Part shown: one piece after another, positions 29,278-36,281 of the stretch
Layout of the letters: each line of letters starts with the position of its first letter
Numbering within the stretch: position 1 is the first letter of the stretch
Translations under genes and position numbers: made by a program
Notes under the pieces: model-generated
The model's input: the letters and a program-made list of their open reading frames with translations, nothing else
The model's database searches: none
What the model was told of the DNA's origin: nothing
Source: Bacteroidales bacterium
Lineage (GTDB): Bacteria > Bacteroidota > Bacteroidia > Bacteroidales > NBLH01
DNA length: 36,281 nucleotides
Direction: 5' to 3'
NCBI GenBank assembly: GCA_016937695.1
Contig: JAFGWC010000085.1
Coordinates: 1-36,281, forward strand

Positions 29278-30204
29278 TTATAAACTATTAACAAACTCAA
29301 TTGCATTTAAAGCAGCAATTGTACCATCAGAAACAGCAGTAGTAATTTGTCTGTATTTTTTTGCAATAGAATCGCCTGCAGCAAAAACGCCTTTTATGTT
29401 TGTTTGTAAATTTTCATCAACAACAATTTCGCCTCTGTTATTTAAATCAACTAAACCTTCAAACATCTGTGTTTGAGGAACATAACCAATAAAAATAAAA
29501 ACTCCATCTATATTAAGTTCTGTAATTTCATGAGTTCTTTGATGTTCAATTTTAACTTTTTTCAAGCTTTCATCACCAAAAAATTCAATTATTTCTGATT
29601 CCATAATATAATTAATTTTTGGATTTTTTTTAGCTTCATCAATTGCATGCGGATATGCTTGAAAATTGTCGAATTGGTGAACAATAGTAACTTTTGAAGC
29701 ATATTGAGTTAAAGAAACAGCTTCTTCCAAAGCAGAATTTCCACCACCAACAACTATAATTTCTTTATCCTGAAAAAAATCGCCATCGCAAGTTGCACAA
29801 TAAGAAATTCCTTTTCCGGCAAATTCTTTTTCGCCAGGCACATTTAATGGTCTTGATTTTCCGCCGGTTGTTAAAATTACAGCATCAGAAATATATTTTT
29901 CTAAATCGTTAACTGTAACTTCTTTAATATCAGTATTTAAAACTAATGATGTAATTTTAATATTAGAGCGAATTTCGCAACCAAATTTTTTTGCTTGCTT
30001 TCTCATGTTTTTAGCCAATTGATATCCTGATATGCTCTCAATACCAGGATAATTTGCTATTTCATGAGTTAAAACAACTTGCCCGCCAATGGTTCCAGAA
30101 TCTAAAATTAAAGTTTTAACTTTTGCTCTTGATAAATATATACCGGCAGTTAGTCCTGCAGGACCGCCACCAATAATAATTACATCATATTTATTTTCTT
30201 CCAT
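29278..30204 (-). CDS. trxB: Thioredoxin reductase with altered NADPH motif
   Basis: A 308-residue flavoprotein of the low-molecular-weight thioredoxin reductase family, cytoplasmic, reducing a thioredoxin disulfide. The FAD site IIGGGPAGLTA (about 10-20), redox pair CATCDGD (Cys136, Cys139), dinucleotide motif VGGGNSALEEA (about 152-162) and C-terminal VFAAGDS are intact. The usual HRRDxFR motif, whose arginines hold the 2'-phosphate of NADPH, reads HQFDNFQ at about 176-182: both consecutive arginines and the third one are gone. This suggests NADH, ferredoxin or another donor. The upstream gene on the same strand codes for an unusual thioredoxin, 61 bases away across a hairpin, so the two are likely partners. 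The family call is firm; the donor is inference. Confidence 0.9.
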   Translation of the reverse strand: MEENKYDVIIIGGGPAGLTAGIYLSRAKVKTLILDSGTIGGQVVLTHEIANYPGIESISGYQLAKNMRKQAKKFGCEIRSNIKITSLVLNTDIKEVTVNDLEKYISDAVILTTGGKSRPLNVPGEKEFAGKGISYCATCDGDFFQDKEIIVVGGGNSALEEAVSLTQYASKVTIVHQFDNFQAYPHAIDEAKKNPKINYIMESEIIEFFGDESLKKVKIEHQRTHEITELNIDGVFIFIGYVPQTQMFEGLVDLNNRGEIVVDENLQTNIKGVFAAGDSIAKKYRQITTAVSDGTIAALNAIEFVNSL

Positions 30205-30218
30205 GTTTTTTAATTAAA

Positions 30219-30246
30219 AATGCCACCTAAAAAATAAGATGGCATT
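30219..30246 (-). terminator. Hairpin between the thioredoxin gene and trxB
   Basis: On the minus strand AATGCCATCT (30246-30237) pairs with AGGTGGCATT (30228-30219), one G-T pair, then a T run. It can end most transcripts after the thioredoxin gene and let a fraction into trxB, which starts 14 bases further on. Confidence 0.75.
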
Positions 30247-30265
30247 GAAAAATTATAATCATCAT

Positions 30266-30619
30266 TTATTTACCAAATTCGCTTTTAAGAATATCTGTAA
30301 TTTGATCTCTGTTTTGGATACTACTGGTAGCTTTAACAACTTTACCGTTTTTAAAATAAACTGTAAAAGGTAAACCCATAAATCCTTTACATTCTGAAAG
30401 ATTTCTAATAACTCCGGCATTTGGATTATCAAAAAGCATATCTCTGAATTCAACATGCTTATATTCTCCTTCATCAATAATATCTTCCATTATATCGTAA
30501 ACAGGAACACACATTGGTCCCATTCTACCGCAACTAACCATAACATTTTCGTTATTATTAATTAGTTCATTAAAATCTTCTACTGTAACTAAATGTTTTA
30601 AATCTGTTTGTAATGTCAT
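30266..30619 (-). CDS. Thioredoxin-fold protein with CX6C active site
   Basis: A 117-residue cytoplasmic thioredoxin-like protein. The position of the usual WCGPC motif reads VSCGRMGPMCVPVY: two cysteines (Cys30 and Cys37) six residues apart in place of two, with no preceding Trp. The downstream cis-proline segment GLPFTVYFKNG (Pro84) and the helix and strand order are normal. An additional Cys77 lies in the middle. Such spacing should alter the redox potential and the fit to reductase. It precedes trxB on the same strand, and that reductase also departs from the standard form. The pair is probably a dedicated thiol-redox system. Function by fold; partner by neighbourhood. Confidence 0.82.
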   Translation of the reverse strand: MTLQTDLKHLVTVEDFNELINNNENVMVSCGRMGPMCVPVYDIMEDIIDEGEYKHVEFRDMLFDNPNAGVIRNLSECKGFMGLPFTVYFKNGKVVKATSSIQNRDQITDILKSEFGK

Positions 30620-30665
30620 GTTTTTAATATTTTATTTCAAATCTAATTATTTACATATTTGGATG

Positions 30666-30673
30666 CAAATTTA
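30666..30673 (-). promoter_or_regulatory. Possible -7 box (TAAATTTG) for the thioredoxin gene
   Basis: The plus strand reads CAAATTTA, 47 bases upstream of the ATG at 30619. A second match, CAAATCTA at 30638-30645, lies closer to the start. The rest of 30674-30841 is AT-rich without other signals. Confidence 0.35.
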
Positions 30674-30841
30674 TTTTTTTTTTATCATCAAAAATAAGAA
30701 TTTGAAAAATATTAATGTTTTTTAACATAAATATTTTATTTCTGATTTTAAACTATTTTTTAGATTTTGATTTTTAAATAAACATTTATATTAAATCACT
30801 AACTATCAATTATTTACAAGCATAAATTCATAAATAAAAAA

Positions 30842-30881
30842 GTCTTTATGTAAATACATTTAAATGTATTTACATAAAGAC
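30842..30881 (-). terminator. Terminator of the DUF1573 gene: perfect 40-base palindrome
   Basis: The two 20-base arms (30842-30861 and 30862-30881) are exact reverse complements with no spacer. On the minus strand it is followed by a run of T, 35 bases after the stop codon of the DUF1573 gene. A folded RNA would open a few bases for the loop. Confidence 0.85.
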
Positions 30882-30915
30882 AATATGATTATTAAGTTTT
30901 GTATTTATTTAAGAA

Positions 30916-32031
30916 TTATTCTACAATAACTTCACCTTTAATTCTCAATATTACTTTATACTTATCAACTCCTTTTTCATCTTTACCAGGAATATTTGTA
31001 ATAATAGTAATGCTTTTATTTTGTCTTCCTTTTTTTCCTCTTGAATTAAAAGTTGCTTTAATTACAGAAGTTTCTCCTGGTTTAATCACTTTTTGGGTTT
31101 CAACTGCAGTACAACCGCAACTAGATTGAGTTTTTCGAATAAAAAGGTCTCTTTTGCCTGTATTTTTAAATTTAAATTCATGAGTTATAACATCGCCATG
31201 TTTTATTTTACCAAAATCAAATTCTTGGTGATCAAAAACCATTGTTGGCGCATTAGCTAATTCACTTTTTGAAAGAGCAGAAAAGTCTTCAAGAATAGAT
31301 GCGCTAACAGAAAGATTATTTCCTACAGGTTGTTCATTATTTACTGTCAGTCTTAATCTATCAGTGGTATTTCCCCAATCATTTTTCTTAGAAGCATCAA
31401 AAGTTATAATTATCTCGCCTTTTTGTTTAGGTTTTAAAGTTGACGGTTTTACCTCAACACTAAGATGGTTAGGAATTCTATCAGCAACAAATCCAACATC
31501 GATAGATTTTTCAGAATCGTTAATAATTTCAACAGACATTGATTTTTTTTCACTATTATACATTCTTGCAAAAGTAATATAGTTAGCTTTTGTTCTTAAA
31601 TCACCAATTTTATATCTGTAAATATCAGCAATAGACTTTTCTTTATTAATTACATCTCCTTTAATAACAAGCTTAATTGGTTCGGCTAAAACATTTGTAT
31701 AAACTAATACATGTTTATTAAAAGCTCCTGGTCTTTCATTCGGGTCAAATTCTGCACTAACAAAACCTTCTTCGCCCGGAACTATTGGCGAACGTGTCCA
31801 TTCCGGCGTTGTACATCCGCAACTTGATTGAACTCTTGTTATAACTACAGGCGATTTTCCGATATTTTTAAATTTAAATTTATAATTTACAGTTCCGCCA
31901 TCTTCTTTAATTCTTCCAAAATCATGTGTTTCTTTTTCAAATTTAATATCAGAAATACTATTTTGAGCAAATAAAGAGTTATTAGCGCCAAATAATAAAC
32001 TTAATGATAAAATAAATATTAAAGTCTTCAT
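30916..32031 (-). CDS. Exported protein with two DUF1573 domains
   Basis: A 371-residue protein with a signal peptide (about 1-23, ending LFAQ). Two DUF1573 domains, Ig-like and related to ASPM-SPD-2-Hydin domains, lie at about 28-125 and 265-371. Each begins with a HDFG or FDFG strand, has FKFKNIGK or FKFKNTGK, and contains the family's SSCGCT motif (Cys71/Cys73 and Cys305/Cys307). The middle part (about 130-260) is probably a further, diverged Ig-like repeat (EIINDSEKSIDVGF, KPKQKGEIIITFD). Such proteins are common in the Bacteroidota envelope and their role is unknown. It is a single-gene unit with a candidate -7 box upstream and a long palindromic terminator downstream. Confidence 0.85.
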   Translation of the reverse strand: MKTLIFILSLSLLFGANNSLFAQNSISDIKFEKETHDFGRIKEDGGTVNYKFKFKNIGKSPVVITRVQSSCGCTTPEWTRSPIVPGEEGFVSAEFDPNERPGAFNKHVLVYTNVLAEPIKLVIKGDVINKEKSIADIYRYKIGDLRTKANYITFARMYNSEKKSMSVEIINDSEKSIDVGFVADRIPNHLSVEVKPSTLKPKQKGEIIITFDASKKNDWGNTTDRLRLTVNNEQPVGNNLSVSASILEDFSALSKSELANAPTMVFDHQEFDFGKIKHGDVITHEFKFKNTGKRDLFIRKTQSSCGCTAVETQKVIKPGETSVIKATFNSRGKKGRQNKSITIITNIPGKDEKGVDKYKVILRIKGEVIVE

Positions 32032-32070
32032 TTTTTAAAATTTTATGTTTTATAATTCTAAGTTGAAATG

Positions 32071-32078
32071 CAAAATTA
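32071..32078 (-). promoter_or_regulatory. Possible -7 box (TAATTTTG) for the DUF1573 gene
   Basis: The plus strand reads CAAAATTA, 40 bases before the ATG at 32031. No convincing -33 element. Confidence 0.35.
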
Positions 32079-32114
32079 TCTTTTTTAACATTAATATAAA
32101 AAATAAAATTAATT

Positions 32115-32122
32115 ATCTTTGA
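32115..32122 (+). promoter_or_regulatory. Possible -7 box (TATCTTTG) for the 32213 barrel gene
   Basis: TATCTTTG matches TAnnTTTG about 90 bases before the ATG; the -33 position is only T-rich. Confidence 0.4.
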
Positions 32123-32212
32123 TATCAATCAAGCTTAAAACGTGATATATTTTTTAAAATTACATTTTTAATTAAATTTATAAACTATTTATTTATATTT
32201 AAAACTAAGATT

Positions 32213-32956
32213 ATGCAAAAAAAACATTTTTTTAAATCATTAATAATTTTATTAATGATTTCATTTACAAATACATACATTCAAGCGCAAGATAATGAAG
32301 AAACTTCATTATTTACAATTTCTGCTGATATGGTTAGTACATACATTTGGCGTGGTGCAACTGTTAGTTCAACTCCAAACATTCAACCATTAATTGCTGT
32401 TGGAGGTGGAAATTTCAGTTTTGGAATTTGGGGTTCTACCGACTTAGCATACAATTCGTTAGGCGCATATAAAGAATTAGATTTTTTTATTGGATATTCT
32501 GCTGGCGGATTTTCGGCTAATTTATATGATTATTATTGGAATCCAACAACAAAATATTTTAATTATGACAATGAAACAACCGGTCATATTTTCGAATTAG
32601 AACTTTCGTATGAAAATGAAAAAGTTCCTTTTAAAATTTCTGCAGCAACTATGCTATATGGTGATGATAAAAAATGGTATTATGATGCTGAAGAAACTGA
32701 TATGAAAAAGAATAATTATTCTACTTATTTTGAGCTTGGATACACATTTACATCAGGAAAAAATACACTTTACACATTTTTGGGTTTAACTCCTTTTACA
32801 GGAATGTATGGAGTTGATTTTAACGGAGTTAACTTAGGTTTTACTGCCAACAGAGAAATTCAAATTAATGAAAAATTTAGTTTGCCAATTTTTATAACAG
32901 CAGCAGCAAATCCTCAAACAGAGAATATTTTTCTAGTTTTTGGTTTTACATTATAA
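32213..32956 (+). CDS. Outer-membrane beta-barrel protein, Gcw_chp-like
   Basis: A 247-residue outer-membrane protein with a signal peptide (about 1-25, ending IQAQ). The first strand pair, SADMVSTYIWRGATVSSTPNIQP, resembles the Gcw_chp (TIGR02001) group, whose members share a conserved Y-x-RG start. Alternating hydrophobic strands continue to the end, which closes with IFLVFGFTL, an acceptable last strand. These barrels have no assigned transport function. It is monocistronic, with a candidate -7 box at 32115 and a strong terminator right after the gene. There are no cysteines and no sign of damage. Confidence 0.75.
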   Translation: MQKKHFFKSLIILLMISFTNTYIQAQDNEETSLFTISADMVSTYIWRGATVSSTPNIQPLIAVGGGNFSFGIWGSTDLAYNSLGAYKELDFFIGYSAGGFSANLYDYYWNPTTKYFNYDNETTGHIFELELSYENEKVPFKISAATMLYGDDKKWYYDAEETDMKKNNYSTYFELGYTFTSGKNTLYTFLGLTPFTGMYGVDFNGVNLGFTANREIQINEKFSLPIFITAAANPQTENIFLVFGFTL

Positions 32957-32971
32957 ATTTAGGATTTAAAT

Positions 32972-33008
32972 AAAAAAGAGACTTTTAAGTTTAAAAGTCT
33001 CTTTTTTT
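32972..33008 (+). terminator. Rho-independent terminator after the barrel gene
   Basis: AAAAAAGAGACTTTTAA (32972-32988) pairs with TTAAAAGTCTCTTTTTT (32991-33007), leaving a two-base gap in DNA, then T. It may act on both strands. Confidence 0.92.
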
Positions 33009-33027
33009 GTGCTCAGAACAAGAATAA

Positions 33028-33271
33028 AAAAAAAAAACTACAATTATTGCCAGTCAACTACCTGTGGCTAGCTGGTTTGATGTAATTGGCGAAGCGACTA
33101 TTGCTGATGCCATTTTAGACCGATTGGTACACACTTCATACAGGATAGAATTAAAAGGAGAAAGTCTAAGGAAAAAAATGTAATTTTGTCATGTTTGCGT
33201 TCTTTAACCTATAAAAAATCAGAGGGTTCAATATCACCGTTTTTTGGGGTCAGTATCACTGGAATTTCCAC
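33028..33271 (+). mobile_element. Remnant of an IS21-family element (istB 3' end and right terminus)
   Basis: An open segment from 33028 ends at a TAA at 33181-33183 and reads TTIIASQLPVASWFDVIGEA ... ADAILDRLVH ... RIELKGESLRKKM, the C-terminus of IstB, the ATPase helper of IS21-family transposition. Only about 52 of some 245 residues remain; a TAA stands directly upstream in the same frame. Downstream are two copies of a 16-base repeat, GGGTTCAATATCACCG (33224-33239) and GGGGTCAGTATCACTG (33246-33261), 13 of 16 matching, as expected of the transposase-binding repeats at an IS21 end. The outer end is probably near the CA at about 33271. The left part, with istA, is missing, so it cannot move by itself. 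Confidence 0.82.
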
Positions 33272-33332
33272 ATTAGCCCCAAAGAGGGCTACATAATACA
33301 ATAGGAGCAAGCAATTAGTTCAAATAAAAAAG
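33272..33332. other. Short spacer after the IS21 remnant
   Basis: It has a small inverted repeat AGCCCC-AAAG-AGGGCT near 33274-33289 and nothing else visible before the stop codon of the next minus-strand gene. Confidence 0.3.
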
Positions 33333-33806
33333 TTATGATGAACTAGGAGTTTTTGTAATTATTAAATCCTTTAGATATCTCAGCGCATCAAACTCATCAT
33401 CGTTTTTCGTATCTGGATTTAATGCTTTTATTTTCCTATAACATATTGTCCACGCATATCTTCCAATTTTTGTTTTATTTTTAAACTTAAATTCAATCAA
33501 CATCAAATTTTGTTCCCTAGATATCGTATTAATTTTTTCTATGTCATCAAATTTTACAGAAGTTTCTCCAAAATATCGCCAAAACCTTAATTCGGCACCA
33601 CTAATCTTACACGAATAGAACTTTCGCAATAAAAAAATAATCAAGGATAAAGTAAATATTAGAGCAGATAAAAGTAGCAATGCTTCTAGTCCGGCATATT
33701 TTCTTAATATAATTAATGCAATATGAATTGCCAAACCAACTGCAAGAGGTATTGCAATAAACTTAACAACAAATACATTCCCATTATTAAACACCTTATA
33801 ATTCAT
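33333..33806 (-). CDS. Small membrane protein with PH-like domain; candidate immunity protein
   Basis: A 157-residue protein with two hydrophobic helices (about 10-34 and 40-60) followed by a beta-rich cytoplasmic part (KISGAELRFWRYFGETSVKFDDIEKI, NLMLIEFKFKNK) that looks like bacterial PH-like domains, and a helical tail. It starts 12 bases after the stop of the RHS tip gene on the same strand, the normal place of an immunity gene in polymorphic-toxin cassettes. That role is an inference from position; I recognise no named immunity family. The TM plus PH layout also occurs in proteins with no toxin link. It is followed by the IS21 remnant. Confidence 0.6.
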   Translation of the reverse strand: MNYKVFNNGNVFVVKFIAIPLAVGLAIHIALIILRKYAGLEALLLLSALIFTLSLIIFLLRKFYSCKISGAELRFWRYFGETSVKFDDIEKINTISREQNLMLIEFKFKNKTKIGRYAWTICYRKIKALNPDTKNDDEFDALRYLKDLIITKTPSSS

Positions 33807-33818
33807 TTATTTTCACAA

Positions 33819-35039
33819 TTAAAAAGATACTTGAACATTGCTTTTTACAGAAACTTCAGGATTTGAATGTCCAGAAACTCCAATAAATATCATTTCTGGA
33901 GCGGTTGCAGACATTCTTTTCCTTGTTATAGTCAAACTTTCTAATGGAATCTCAACAAACCCTCCTACATAAGTCATTTGTCCTCCAACCTTAATATCCG
34001 CTCCACCTATATCACTTCTTGTAAATACTCTATTTTTATCGACTAAATACCAACCTGCGGCTATTGATCCCTCTACTTCTCCAAAATCCTTGTCTGTTGA
34101 AACTTCAGTTAAACCATAAATATATGCATTTTTAGCCCTAAAGTCTATCACACCACTGATTCCTCCTCTAAAGAAATAAATATTAACACCAATTTCCATT
34201 TTTACCATATCTGGAGGTCTAGCATCGTATTTACTTGTTGTAAACTCTTTATCTTTTATTTCTTCTTTTTTAAAAAACATACTATAGAATGCTTGGCTCA
34301 AATAATCAAAAATACCATTATAGCTTTTTGGTTTAGGATATTCAGACTTTTTACCATCCTTATCACCACCATCTCCTCCATCGTCTTCATCATCAGATGC
34401 CTGATAAACAGTTGTTCCATATGAACCATCAAGTACTGAGCTGCCTGTTGGTCCGCCGCGCCTTTCAATTATATTACCTTCTGCATCAGTCATATAAGAA
34501 TAATCATGTAATCCGTACCTTACTCTTTTTCCCGGCTCTAATCTTGTTGCTGTAACTGTTACTTCGCCAATTAAATTCATTTTACTTCCACCTCCTTCGT
34601 TTCCTTCCATTAGTCCTTCAATAAATGCTGTATTATTTATACCATTCTGCCAATCTCCTGGCGAAATCATATCCTCCGCACCATTTATCTCAAAATTATT
34701 TATCGGGTTATTACCTGCAAAATGATAAGGCGATTGTGTAGAGTAGTTTTCGGCTAATGGGTCGCGCACATGCCAGCGTGCAAGTTGTGCATCGTAATTT
34801 CTAAAACCAAACTCGTAATGACCTGTAAATGAGTCTTTTTTCCCGCAAAAGCGGGATCTTCGCTTTGCTACGACTTTACCACCAAATAAAAACTTATTTT
34901 GGCTGTCGTTATTTGTCTGGTATCTTTCCGAAAAACTTAGTCCATTCTGTGTCATCCCAAAAGGATAATAACTATCTTCTTGCAATACAAGTGTATCGGT
35001 GTTAAATGTTAGCCTTATATTTCCTAAATGGTCGCTCAT
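33819..35039 (-). CDS. 5'-truncated RHS-core protein with variable C-terminal tip (candidate orphan toxin)
   Basis: A 406-residue open frame. Residues 1-120 are the end of an RHS core: DHLGNIRLTF, YYPFGM, the segment ending DSFTGHYEFGFRNYDAQLARWHVRDPLAEN and SPYHFAGNNPINNFEINGAED. The RHS-like frame continues upstream of the ATG (NFERQYFMSDH, KLKYIFVSEG) to about 35140 without any usual start, so the gene lost its 5' end, secretion part included. After the core come a Gly/Asp-rich linker (about 195-250) and a strand-rich tail (about 283-406: VKMEIGVNIYFFRGGISGV ... PEVSVKSNVQVSF). I do not recognise this tip; it lacks an obvious nuclease motif, and pore formation is one possibility. The next gene, 12 bases on, may be its immunity partner. 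Confidence 0.7.
   Translation of the reverse strand: MSDHLGNIRLTFNTDTLVLQEDSYYPFGMTQNGLSFSERYQTNNDSQNKFLFGGKVVAKRRSRFCGKKDSFTGHYEFGFRNYDAQLARWHVRDPLAENYSTQSPYHFAGNNPINNFEINGAEDMISPGDWQNGINNTAFIEGLMEGNEGGGSKMNLIGEVTVTATRLEPGKRVRYGLHDYSYMTDAEGNIIERRGGPTGSSVLDGSYGTTVYQASDDEDDGGDGGDKDGKKSEYPKPKSYNGIFDYLSQAFYSMFFKKEEIKDKEFTTSKYDARPPDMVKMEIGVNIYFFRGGISGVIDFRAKNAYIYGLTEVSTDKDFGEVEGSIAAGWYLVDKNRVFTRSDIGGADIKVGGQMTYVGGFVEIPLESLTITRKRMSATAPEMIFIGVSGHSNPEVSVKSNVQVSF
34836..34874 (-). repeat. Palindromic insert inside the RHS core
   Basis: Where RHS cores usually read FxGKE-DSFTG, this one has about 13 extra residues (VVAKRRSRFCGKK). The DNA holds CCCGC-AAAA-GCGGG (34842-34855) flanked by T/A runs. The insert keeps the frame and is Arg/Lys-rich, unlike its surroundings. 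Confidence 0.5.
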
Positions 35040-35111
35040 AAAATATTGGCGTTCAAAATTTCTTTCTTCATCTACAAATATTCTGCCTTCTGATACAAAG
35101 ATATATTTTAA

Positions 35112-35174
35112 TTTGGTTGTTTTAGGTACAATCTTGCGGCAGCAGTGGTTTAGTAATTTTTGATATAAAATTAT
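35112..35174 (-). other. Junction where the RHS frame meets the stop of the upstream gene
   Basis: The RHS frame is open back to the TGA at 35177-35175 that ends the upstream membrane-protein gene in the same frame. RHS-like sequence (RKIV...KLKYIF) fades out near 35140, marking the probable break point. Confidence 0.45.
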
Positions 35175-35609
35175 TCAATCAAAAATACTCTGCGATTTTC
35201 TTAACTTTATTTGTCTTTCTGTCTTTATGATAATCAAGATTCCTAAAACAAAAGCTGTTACTGCAATCAGGATAAAACAAATTATAAATAAAATACCTAT
35301 TAGTTTATCACTTGTATTTATTGAAACTATATCAATTATGTATGAAAAATATCCAGAAATAAATCCTAAGATGGCAAGAATAGTTATCGGGTTATACTTA
35401 ATTAATGTCCAAGCTCCCACAAAATAATTCCACTTAAACTTTTTTTCATCAAGTGCTATATTAGCCGGTATAATAGTTAAAAGCCCAAGAATCATTGTGA
35501 AAAAATTTTGAAAAAGGAACACGAAAATAAAAATCTCAAGCAATCCCAGAATTATAAAAAACCTGTTTAACCTACGTAGTGTTTTTAAATTTTGTTTTAT
35601 TAAATCCAT
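35175..35609 (-). CDS. Small four-helix membrane protein, possible displaced immunity protein
   Basis: A 144-residue polytopic membrane protein. About four hydrophobic helices occur (16-36, 37-52, 75-95 and 105-130), with basic loops and tail (KTLRRLNR at the start; KTERQIKLRKSQ at the end). No family is recognised. It lies directly upstream of the truncated RHS core, and its stop codon is in the same frame as that core. Small membrane proteins of this kind often guard against RHS or other polymorphic toxins, and extra copies are left behind as tips are exchanged; this is an inference by position only. It could equally be an unrelated membrane protein. Confidence 0.55.
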   Translation of the reverse strand: MDLIKQNLKTLRRLNRFFIILGLLEIFIFVFLFQNFFTMILGLLTIIPANIALDEKKFKWNYFVGAWTLIKYNPITILAILGFISGYFSYIIDIVSINTSDKLIGILFIICFILIAVTAFVLGILIIIKTERQIKLRKSQSIFD

Positions 35610-35770
35610 AATTTTTTCTTAATAATTAAACATAAAAGATTTTACATCTATATAATCGCTACTTATAAAAGCAATGTTTTCTTTTAAAAATTATAAAATA
35701 CTTTCTTCAAATAATAATACAATATGTCTTTCCAAATTTAATGTTGAATTAGCTACTGTACTATTTGAAA

Positions 35771-36187
35771 CTAAGGATTATTTATATTATATTCCCGCAC
35801 TAATTCTACCATTATATATAAACAGACAGCAGATAGTATATAATAAAAAATACTTAAAATTCTGAAAACTTTTTTCTTATTATCTGGTATTATCTCATAA
35901 TATTTTAGAATTTTTAAATATCTTTTACCCTTATTTATATATAAAAATGTTAACCCAAATAAGAATATTCCAAAATATTTATAATACTCACTAATTGTTT
36001 TAATCTTACTAGGGAAGATGTTATAGGCAAAAATTTCTAATAATACAATAAGATTAATTGTAATTAAAATAGAGATTATCCCTCCTGCCCATGTTTGAGG
36101 GAATTCTTTTTCCTTAAAAACATTAATGCAAAAATAGTAGGCCGTGTAAAAAATATATCTAAAAAACATTATCATAAGAGACAACAC
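35771..36187 (-). CDS. Small polytopic membrane protein, possible immunity protein
   Basis: A 138-residue membrane protein with about four hydrophobic helices (7-22, 33-56, 70-84 and 108-130) and short charged loops (KGKRYLKILKYYEI, PDNKKKVF). The start may be the first Met or Met5/Met7 (MLSLMIM). No family recognised. It lies 161 bases upstream of the 144-residue membrane protein on the same strand, and a terminator on the same strand upstream (36240-36263) isolates this group from whatever precedes it. Its placement in the RHS zone suggests an immunity or accessory gene, without direct proof. The 161-base gap to the next gene is AT-rich and empty. Confidence 0.5.
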   Translation of the reverse strand: MLSLMIMFFRYIFYTAYYFCINVFKEKEFPQTWAGGIISILITINLIVLLEIFAYNIFPSKIKTISEYYKYFGIFLFGLTFLYINKGKRYLKILKYYEIIPDNKKKVFRILSIFYYILSAVCLYIMVELVREYNINNP

Positions 36188-36234
36188 TATCCTAAAAATT
36201 TATTGTTAGTTATTTTGTTATTAAATACAAAAAA

Positions 36235-36263
36235 CAAAAAAGCCTTACATTTCTGTAAGGCTT
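36235..36263 (-). terminator. Terminator of a minus-strand gene beyond the window
   Basis: AAGCCTTACA (36240-36249) pairs with TGTAAGGCTT (36254-36263), four-base loop. On the minus strand it is followed by a T run, so it closes a transcript that enters from the right. Confidence 0.88.
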
Positions 36264-36281
36264 AGATTTTAAATGTGCCCA

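What the first reader, a model, noticed from the sequence alone, without database searches (positions are those of the whole stretch)
33333..36187. Orphan RHS tip with possible immunity genes on both sides
Minus-strand order: two small membrane proteins, a truncated RHS core plus variable tip, then a TM/PH-like protein 12 bases after it. Orphan RHS tips with displaced immunity genes are a known pattern of polymorphic-toxin evolution. The tip and all three neighbours lack families I recognise, so this may be an undescribed toxin/immunity set.
Basis: partly seen in the sequence, partly recalled or inferred. Interest (0 to 1): 0.6.

Follow-up and report, generated by a model that had tools for sequence, protein, structure and literature searches.

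The report
Orphan RHS toxin-tip and immunity cluster
This is a broken-off end of a bacterial weapon gene with its probable antidote gene and two further antidote-type genes beside it, a spare-cartridge arrangement already known from other bacteria, although this particular tip has no recognisable relative.

Summary
On the minus strand lie two small membrane proteins, an RHS C-terminal fragment with a variable tip, and a membrane protein starting 12 bases after it. The RHS core is real (TIGR03696, 43 bits, cut-off 32.5).

The outermost membrane protein (35771-36187) is a distant, full-length relative of Bfi1 T6SS immunity proteins (E 8.8e-7, below the curated cut-off). Its relative in another genome (38% identity) sits directly behind an RHS tip; here a terminator stands upstream, so it looks stranded. 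The protein after the tip is modelled as two membrane helices plus a PH-like domain.

The same genome carries RHS remnants on three more contigs, one with a tip and lipoprotein gene; a congener has a four-core array. This is an orphan rhs-CT/immunity cluster, a known kind (PMC3150448, PMC3967940).

The tip matches nothing convincing in any collection searched and could not be modelled; its toxicity is inferred. Interest is modest: an ordinary arrangement with an unclassified tip.

The parts
33333..33806 (-). 157-aa protein, two membrane helices then PH-like domain; likely cognate immunity protein of the tip
   Evidence: ORF, 12 bases after the RHS stop; hydropathy; AlphaFold2 pLDDT 62.1, two helices plus strands and C-terminal helices; best VIA-align matches are PH domains, Z 9.0, 82 residues, rmsd 2.6. 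No clear relative in 295 order and 247 class genomes.
33819..34295 (-). variable C-terminal tip of the RHS fragment (about 158 aa; the boundary is my choice), presumed toxin domain
   Evidence: Downstream of the RHS core; no family at E up to 5 in Pfam or NCBIfam. First part shared with the tip on contig C34 (34% over 102 columns; 0 of 300 shuffles), the rest not (23 of 300 shuffles). Model useless, pLDDT 30.6.
34296..34679 (-). linker between RHS core and tip; a 25-base stretch at 34425-34449 is identical to the start of contig C34
34680..34916 (-). RHS repeat-associated core domain
   Evidence: TIGR03696 hit at this place in the own-genome search, 44.3 bits; 43 bits as protein, cut-off 32.5
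35040..35122 (-). remnant of RHS coding sequence upstream of the first ATG; similarity to the RHS fragment on C34 starts near 35122
   Evidence: frame read on upstream; DNA match from query position 1160; alignment
35175..35609 (-). 144-aa membrane protein, probable stranded immunity gene
   Evidence: ORF, hydropathy; no family above cut-off; weak partial matches only in 247 class genomes
35771..36187 (-). 138-aa membrane protein, distant relative of the Bfi1 immunity family
   Evidence: NF053699, E 8.8e-7, 28.9 bits (cut-off 100), residues 8-131 on profile 3-126 of 131; 38% identity over 133 aa to a protein directly behind an RHS tip in G407
36236..36263 (-). intrinsic terminator upstream of the Bfi1 relative
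   Evidence: 10-pair stem with T tail; -14 kcal/mol, z -2.58

Best explanation
An orphan rhs-CT/immunity cluster. A C-terminal piece of an RHS weapon gene (core remnant plus variable tip) was cut off from its delivery part and kept with its cognate immunity gene, the two-helix/PH-like membrane protein 12 bases behind it. The two membrane-protein genes in front are immunity genes left from other tips. In this state the tip is probably not delivered, perhaps not translated. Its likely uses are (a) standing immunity against neighbours that carry the matching tips and (b) a reserve cartridge that recombination through the shared RHS core could load onto a complete RHS gene. Because the presumed partner and both flanking immunity-type genes are membrane proteins, the tip most likely acts at or across the inner membrane or in the periplasm. 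Shown: anatomy, RHS core, Bfi1 relationship, further RHS remnants in the same genome, a tip array in a congener. Inferred: toxicity, pairing, membrane target, reloading.
For: RHS core above cut-off; truncated frame, and no RHS repeats found in the assembly. DNA-level copies of the same RHS segment elsewhere in the genome: C34 (69% identity), C26 (88% over 138 bases), C108 (83% over 69 bases). C34 holds a tip followed by a lipoprotein gene, then an RHS fragment with a decayed version of that tip and a homologous lipoprotein gene. A congener contig carries four RHS cores with small genes between them. Bfi1-family matches: 8 of 21 outside this genome follow a polymorphic-toxin gene (7 with RHS core, 1 with intein/HINT-type matches) directly or one gene away; one of these tips matches the Bfe1 T6SS effector family (E 1.5e-27). 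In G407 the order is RHS tip, Bfi1 relative, small membrane gene, next RHS core, much like this window.
Against: Nothing shows that the tip is toxic: no family, no relative, no usable model. 13 of 21 Bfi1-family matches had no polymorphic-toxin gene upstream (one of them has an RHS fragment downstream, one is cut by a contig end). The complete RHS gene and the tips belonging to the two upstream genes were not found in the assembly; the G407 tip has no match in this genome. No delivery system was searched for.
Confidence: 0.75

Rival explanations
1. Decaying debris: the RHS fragment and neighbours are remnants of former weapon loci with no present function.
For: No clear start for the RHS frame; a 70-base RHS fossil on C108 and a decayed tip on C34 show that such pieces do decay in this genome; no RHS repeats found in the assembly.
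Against: The 406-aa frame and all three neighbours are intact and open; the immunity-type genes have their own start codons.
Confidence: 0.3
2. The two upstream membrane genes protect against this same tip, so that all three small genes form one immunity set.
For: Same strand, close spacing, all membrane proteins.
Against: In the relatives read, immunity-type genes follow their tip; the Bfi1 relative in G407 follows a tip of different sequence, and the RHS remnant starts anew after the two genes.
Confidence: 0.1
3. The tip is a structural, nontoxic RHS end and the small genes are unrelated membrane proteins.
For: No toxin family matched; 13 of 21 Bfi1-family matches lie without an upstream polymorphic-toxin gene.
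Against: Tips vary between the RHS fragments of this genome while the core is shared; small genes follow the tips in C34 and in the congener.
Confidence: 0.1

Closest known systems
Orphan rhs-CT/rhsI and cdiA-CT/cdiI modules (PMC3967940, PMC3150448; passages seen)
   Same: C-terminal fragment of the weapon gene, without the delivery part and without a clear translation start, followed closely by a small gene; several such fragments in one genome.
   Different: Bacteroidota-type RHS; no main rhs gene found in the assembly; fragments seen on separate contigs; shared core DNA here 69-88%, against 95% over 522 bp in the Salmonella case.
Bfe1/Bfi1 T6SS effector-immunity pair (NF053698/NF053699; a table row of PMC7604300 and passages of PMC6692515 seen)
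   Same: 35771-36187 aligns over nearly the whole Bfi1 profile; another genome has an RHS protein whose tip matches Bfe1, followed by a Bfi1 family member.
   Different: 28.9 bits against a cut-off of 100; no Bfe1-type tip seen next to it here.
Bacterial toxin 23 / Ntox23 (all-beta, Bacteroidetes, RHS; table entry seen in PMC3482391)
   Same: RHS carrier; tip looks beta-rich and glycine-rich by reading the sequence.
   Different: No Pfam match at E up to 5; that Pfam holds this family is recalled.
Membrane proteins with two helices and a bacterial PH domain, such as YcxB-like proteins (recalled, from no call)
   Same: Modelled layout of 33333-33806.
   Different: No Pfam family above cut-off.

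Membership tests
RHS repeat-associated core proteins | TIGR03696 match above curated cut-off | tested here: met
   43 bits, cut-off 32.5
RHS repeat-associated core proteins | RHS/YD repeats forming the shell upstream of the core | tested here: not met
   fragment begins just upstream of the core; PF05593 not found in the assembly (0 of 1)
Orphan rhs-CT/immunity module | truncated rhs fragment with core remnant and variable C-terminus, no delivery part | tested here: met
Orphan rhs-CT/immunity module | small gene directly behind the tip | tested here: met
   12 bases
[quoted passage not shown]
   contig ends at 36281
Orphan rhs-CT/immunity module | tip toxic, neutralised by its neighbour | not testable with these tools
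   needs expression tests
Bfi1 immunity family NF053699 (35771-36187) | score above curated cut-off of 100 bits | tested here: not met
   28.9 bits; a distant relative, not a member
Bfi1 immunity family NF053699 (35771-36187) | full-length alignment to the profile | tested here: met
   profile 3-126 of 131
Bfi1 immunity family NF053699 (35771-36187) | adjacent Bfe1-type effector | tested here: inconclusive
   contig ends 94 bases upstream; no minus-strand frame of 50 aa or more lies there
Ntox23 / Bacterial toxin 23 (tip) | Pfam profile match | tested here: not met
   0 families for the tip at E up to 5
PH-like membrane proteins (33333-33806) | PH fold | tested here: inconclusive
   model pLDDT 62; Z up to 9.0, but no Foldseek match at E <= 0.001
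Polyimmunity locus | tandem immunity genes not interrupted by toxin cassettes | tested here: not met
   an RHS tip lies between them; definition from a passage of PMC3482391
Polyimmunity locus | recombinase gene nearby in several cases | not tested
   the rest of the window was not annotated

The most novel reading that the evidence does not exclude
The tip (33819-34295) is a new toxin family that attacks the cell envelope, neutralised by a new type of immunity protein, a membrane-anchored PH-like domain, and kept as a reserve cartridge in a scattered set of RHS tips.
Probability: 0.35. Interest if true: 0.45.

Novelty: new member of a known kind. Interest (0 to 1): 0.27.

Why it matters
It adds a Bacteroidota-type example of scattered orphan RHS tips with immunity genes, links a stranded gene to the Bfi1 family, and offers an unclassified tip/immunity pair for testing. 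The principle is already described.

Tried and rejected
Searches without a result for the tip: viral contigs (7 pattern hits, none confirmed), plasmids, genome contigs (50 pattern hits, none confirmed), solved structures, Pfam and NCBIfam up to E 5, PADLOC for the whole RHS protein. Genome searches for the tip gave only weak hits outside this genome: L005 and L067, L068 lie in frames that do not look like RHS tips and were dropped. The seven-genome family search hit only the own genome.

For 33333-33806, plasmids and solved structures gave nothing; the weak genome hits (four and three, E 0.005-0.01, most with stops inside) were dropped unread, as was a partial PADLOC match (PDC-M14B, E 0.0045, residues 55-111) and Pfam DUF5067 at E 0.063. 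For 35175-35609, the seven weak hits and a sub-threshold Pfam match (CYYR1, E 0.0032, 18.3 bits, cut-off 31) were dropped as membrane-composition matches. For 35771-36187, plasmids gave nothing.

A single-sequence model of the tip failed (pLDDT 30.6), so no fold search was made with it. That the congener protein at L036:7222-7608 is a relative of 35771-36187 was suspected by eye and not supported. That the two upstream membrane proteins are homologous to each other was not supported. Rfam: no match in 30000-36281. Promoter scan: no excess over shuffles.

Full report
The finding names four minus-strand genes at the end of a 36,281-base contig. All four are there. The RHS gene (33819-35039) carries an RHS-associated core above the curated cut-off. 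Its frame runs on upstream of the proposed start with RHS-like sequence, so the gene is a fragment with an arbitrary first ATG. Similarity to another RHS fragment of the same genome, on contig C34, begins near 35122. The next gene starts 12 bases after the stop.

The window is a whole contig of a 3.95 Mb, 159-contig assembly that is 99.6% complete. A search with TIGR03696 found three cores: this one, one at the end of C26, and a different type on C76. A DNA search added C34 and a 69-base match on C108. No RHS repeat (PF05593) was found in the assembly. C26 and C34 both break off inside RHS sequence, and C124 ends 94 bases upstream of 36187, so a complete RHS gene may be missing for technical reasons.

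C34 opens with a tip, then a 108-aa lipoprotein-like gene, then an RHS fragment with a decayed version of the same tip, then a 104-aa homologue of the lipoprotein (alignment score 352 against a shuffled mean of 28, 0 of 300 shuffles). The window's tip shares its first part with the C34 tip (34% over 102 columns; 0 of 300 shuffles) but the remainder is not clearly more alike than shuffles (23 of 300). So core and pre-tip are shared while the ends differ, as expected of polymorphic tips.

Among seven genomes of the genus, the own one included, four have the core. One congener contig (G002:C117, L036) carries four cores with small genes between them, and another contig of that genome a 1169-aa RHS protein. 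An array of this kind therefore exists close by.

Neighbour 35771-36187 matches the Bfi1 immunity family over nearly its whole length, but at 28.9 bits against a cut-off of 100. It is a distant relative, not a member. The family search over 395 class genomes rang in 20, with 22 places. Of the 21 places outside this genome, 8 have a polymorphic-toxin gene upstream on the same strand, directly or one gene away: L044, L046, L048, L050, L055, L058, L059, L064 (confirmed by family scan; L055 by intein-type matches, the others by the RHS core; L048 and L064 are from one genome). L061 has an RHS fragment downstream only. The other 12 show none in the roughly 1.5 kb read, judged by reading the frames, not by scan; L060 is cut by a contig end. 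In L044 the tip matches the Bfe1 T6SS effector family. L058 gave the one relative compared in full (38% over 133 aa) and sits directly behind an RHS tip, with another small membrane gene and a new RHS core after it. That tip has no match in the own genome. In passages of PMC6692515 Bfe1 kills Bacteroides when directed to the periplasm.

In this window a strong intrinsic terminator stands between the contig end and the Bfi1 relative, and no minus-strand frame of 50 aa or more runs into it from the contig end. I read it as a stranded immunity gene. Neighbour 35175-35609 is a membrane protein without a recognisable family.

Gene 33333-33806, behind the tip, was modelled from its single sequence with moderate confidence (pLDDT 62.1): two helices, then a beta-rich domain and C-terminal helices. 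Foldseek gave no match at E <= 0.001, but most leading rows are PH or PH-like domains, and the second look gave Z 9.0 over 82 residues. The tool warns that Z under 8 may mean only a common arrangement; three chains reached 8 or more, all Rtt106 PH domains.

The tip is the open point. It has no match in 393 order genomes or 395 class genomes beyond the own genome and weak, dropped hits, none in viral contigs, plasmids or the 84,980-genome collection, none among solved structures, and no family. The pattern-based scans find close relatives only. The model was useless.

Papers: I saw passages of PMC3967940, PMC3150448, PMC3482391, PMC7073777, PMC6692515 and PMC7604300, and the abstract and outline of PMC12247911. 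The first two describe orphan toxin/immunity modules as displaced fragments, usually without translation start, that can be toxic, with immunity genes that can be expressed, and, in Salmonella, loading of the orphan tip onto the main rhs gene by recombination. The window fits this description. I did not search for a paper on this particular tip.

Verdict: a real, ordinary orphan RHS tip/immunity cluster with one immunity-type gene related to the Bfi1 family and an unclassified tip.

Noticed in passing
34841-34856; L013:1261-1276 and 1399-1414: A palindrome (TCCCGC-loop-GCGGGA type) sits inside the RHS coding sequence in frame; two more copies occur in the C34 RHS fragment. Among 79 loci held it occurred only in loci covering these two places, as if a small repeat element invades RHS genes.
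   Followed up: partly
36230-36269: The terminator upstream of the Bfi1 relative resembles sequences at C85, C58 and C68 of the same genome (81-93% over 40-60 bases): a dispersed terminator-like repeat.
   Followed up: partly
L013:1-2008 (own genome C34): Tip plus lipoprotein gene, followed by an RHS fragment, a decayed copy of the same tip and a homologous lipoprotein gene: a duplicated tip/immunity pair in two states of decay.
   Followed up: partly
L024:6815-6885 (own genome C108): A short RHS fossil, about 70 bases, behind an unrelated gene.
   Followed up: partly
L036 (congener G002 contig C117): Four RHS cores in a row with different tips and small genes between them.
   Followed up: partly
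L044:3-1905 (G705 contig C10): An RHS protein whose tip matches the Bfe1 T6SS effector family, followed after a few bases by a Bfi1 family member above cut-off.
   Followed up: partly
34425-34449: 25 bases identical to the very start of contig C34, inside the core-tip linker; the assembly breaks there on C34 but not in the window.
   Followed up: no
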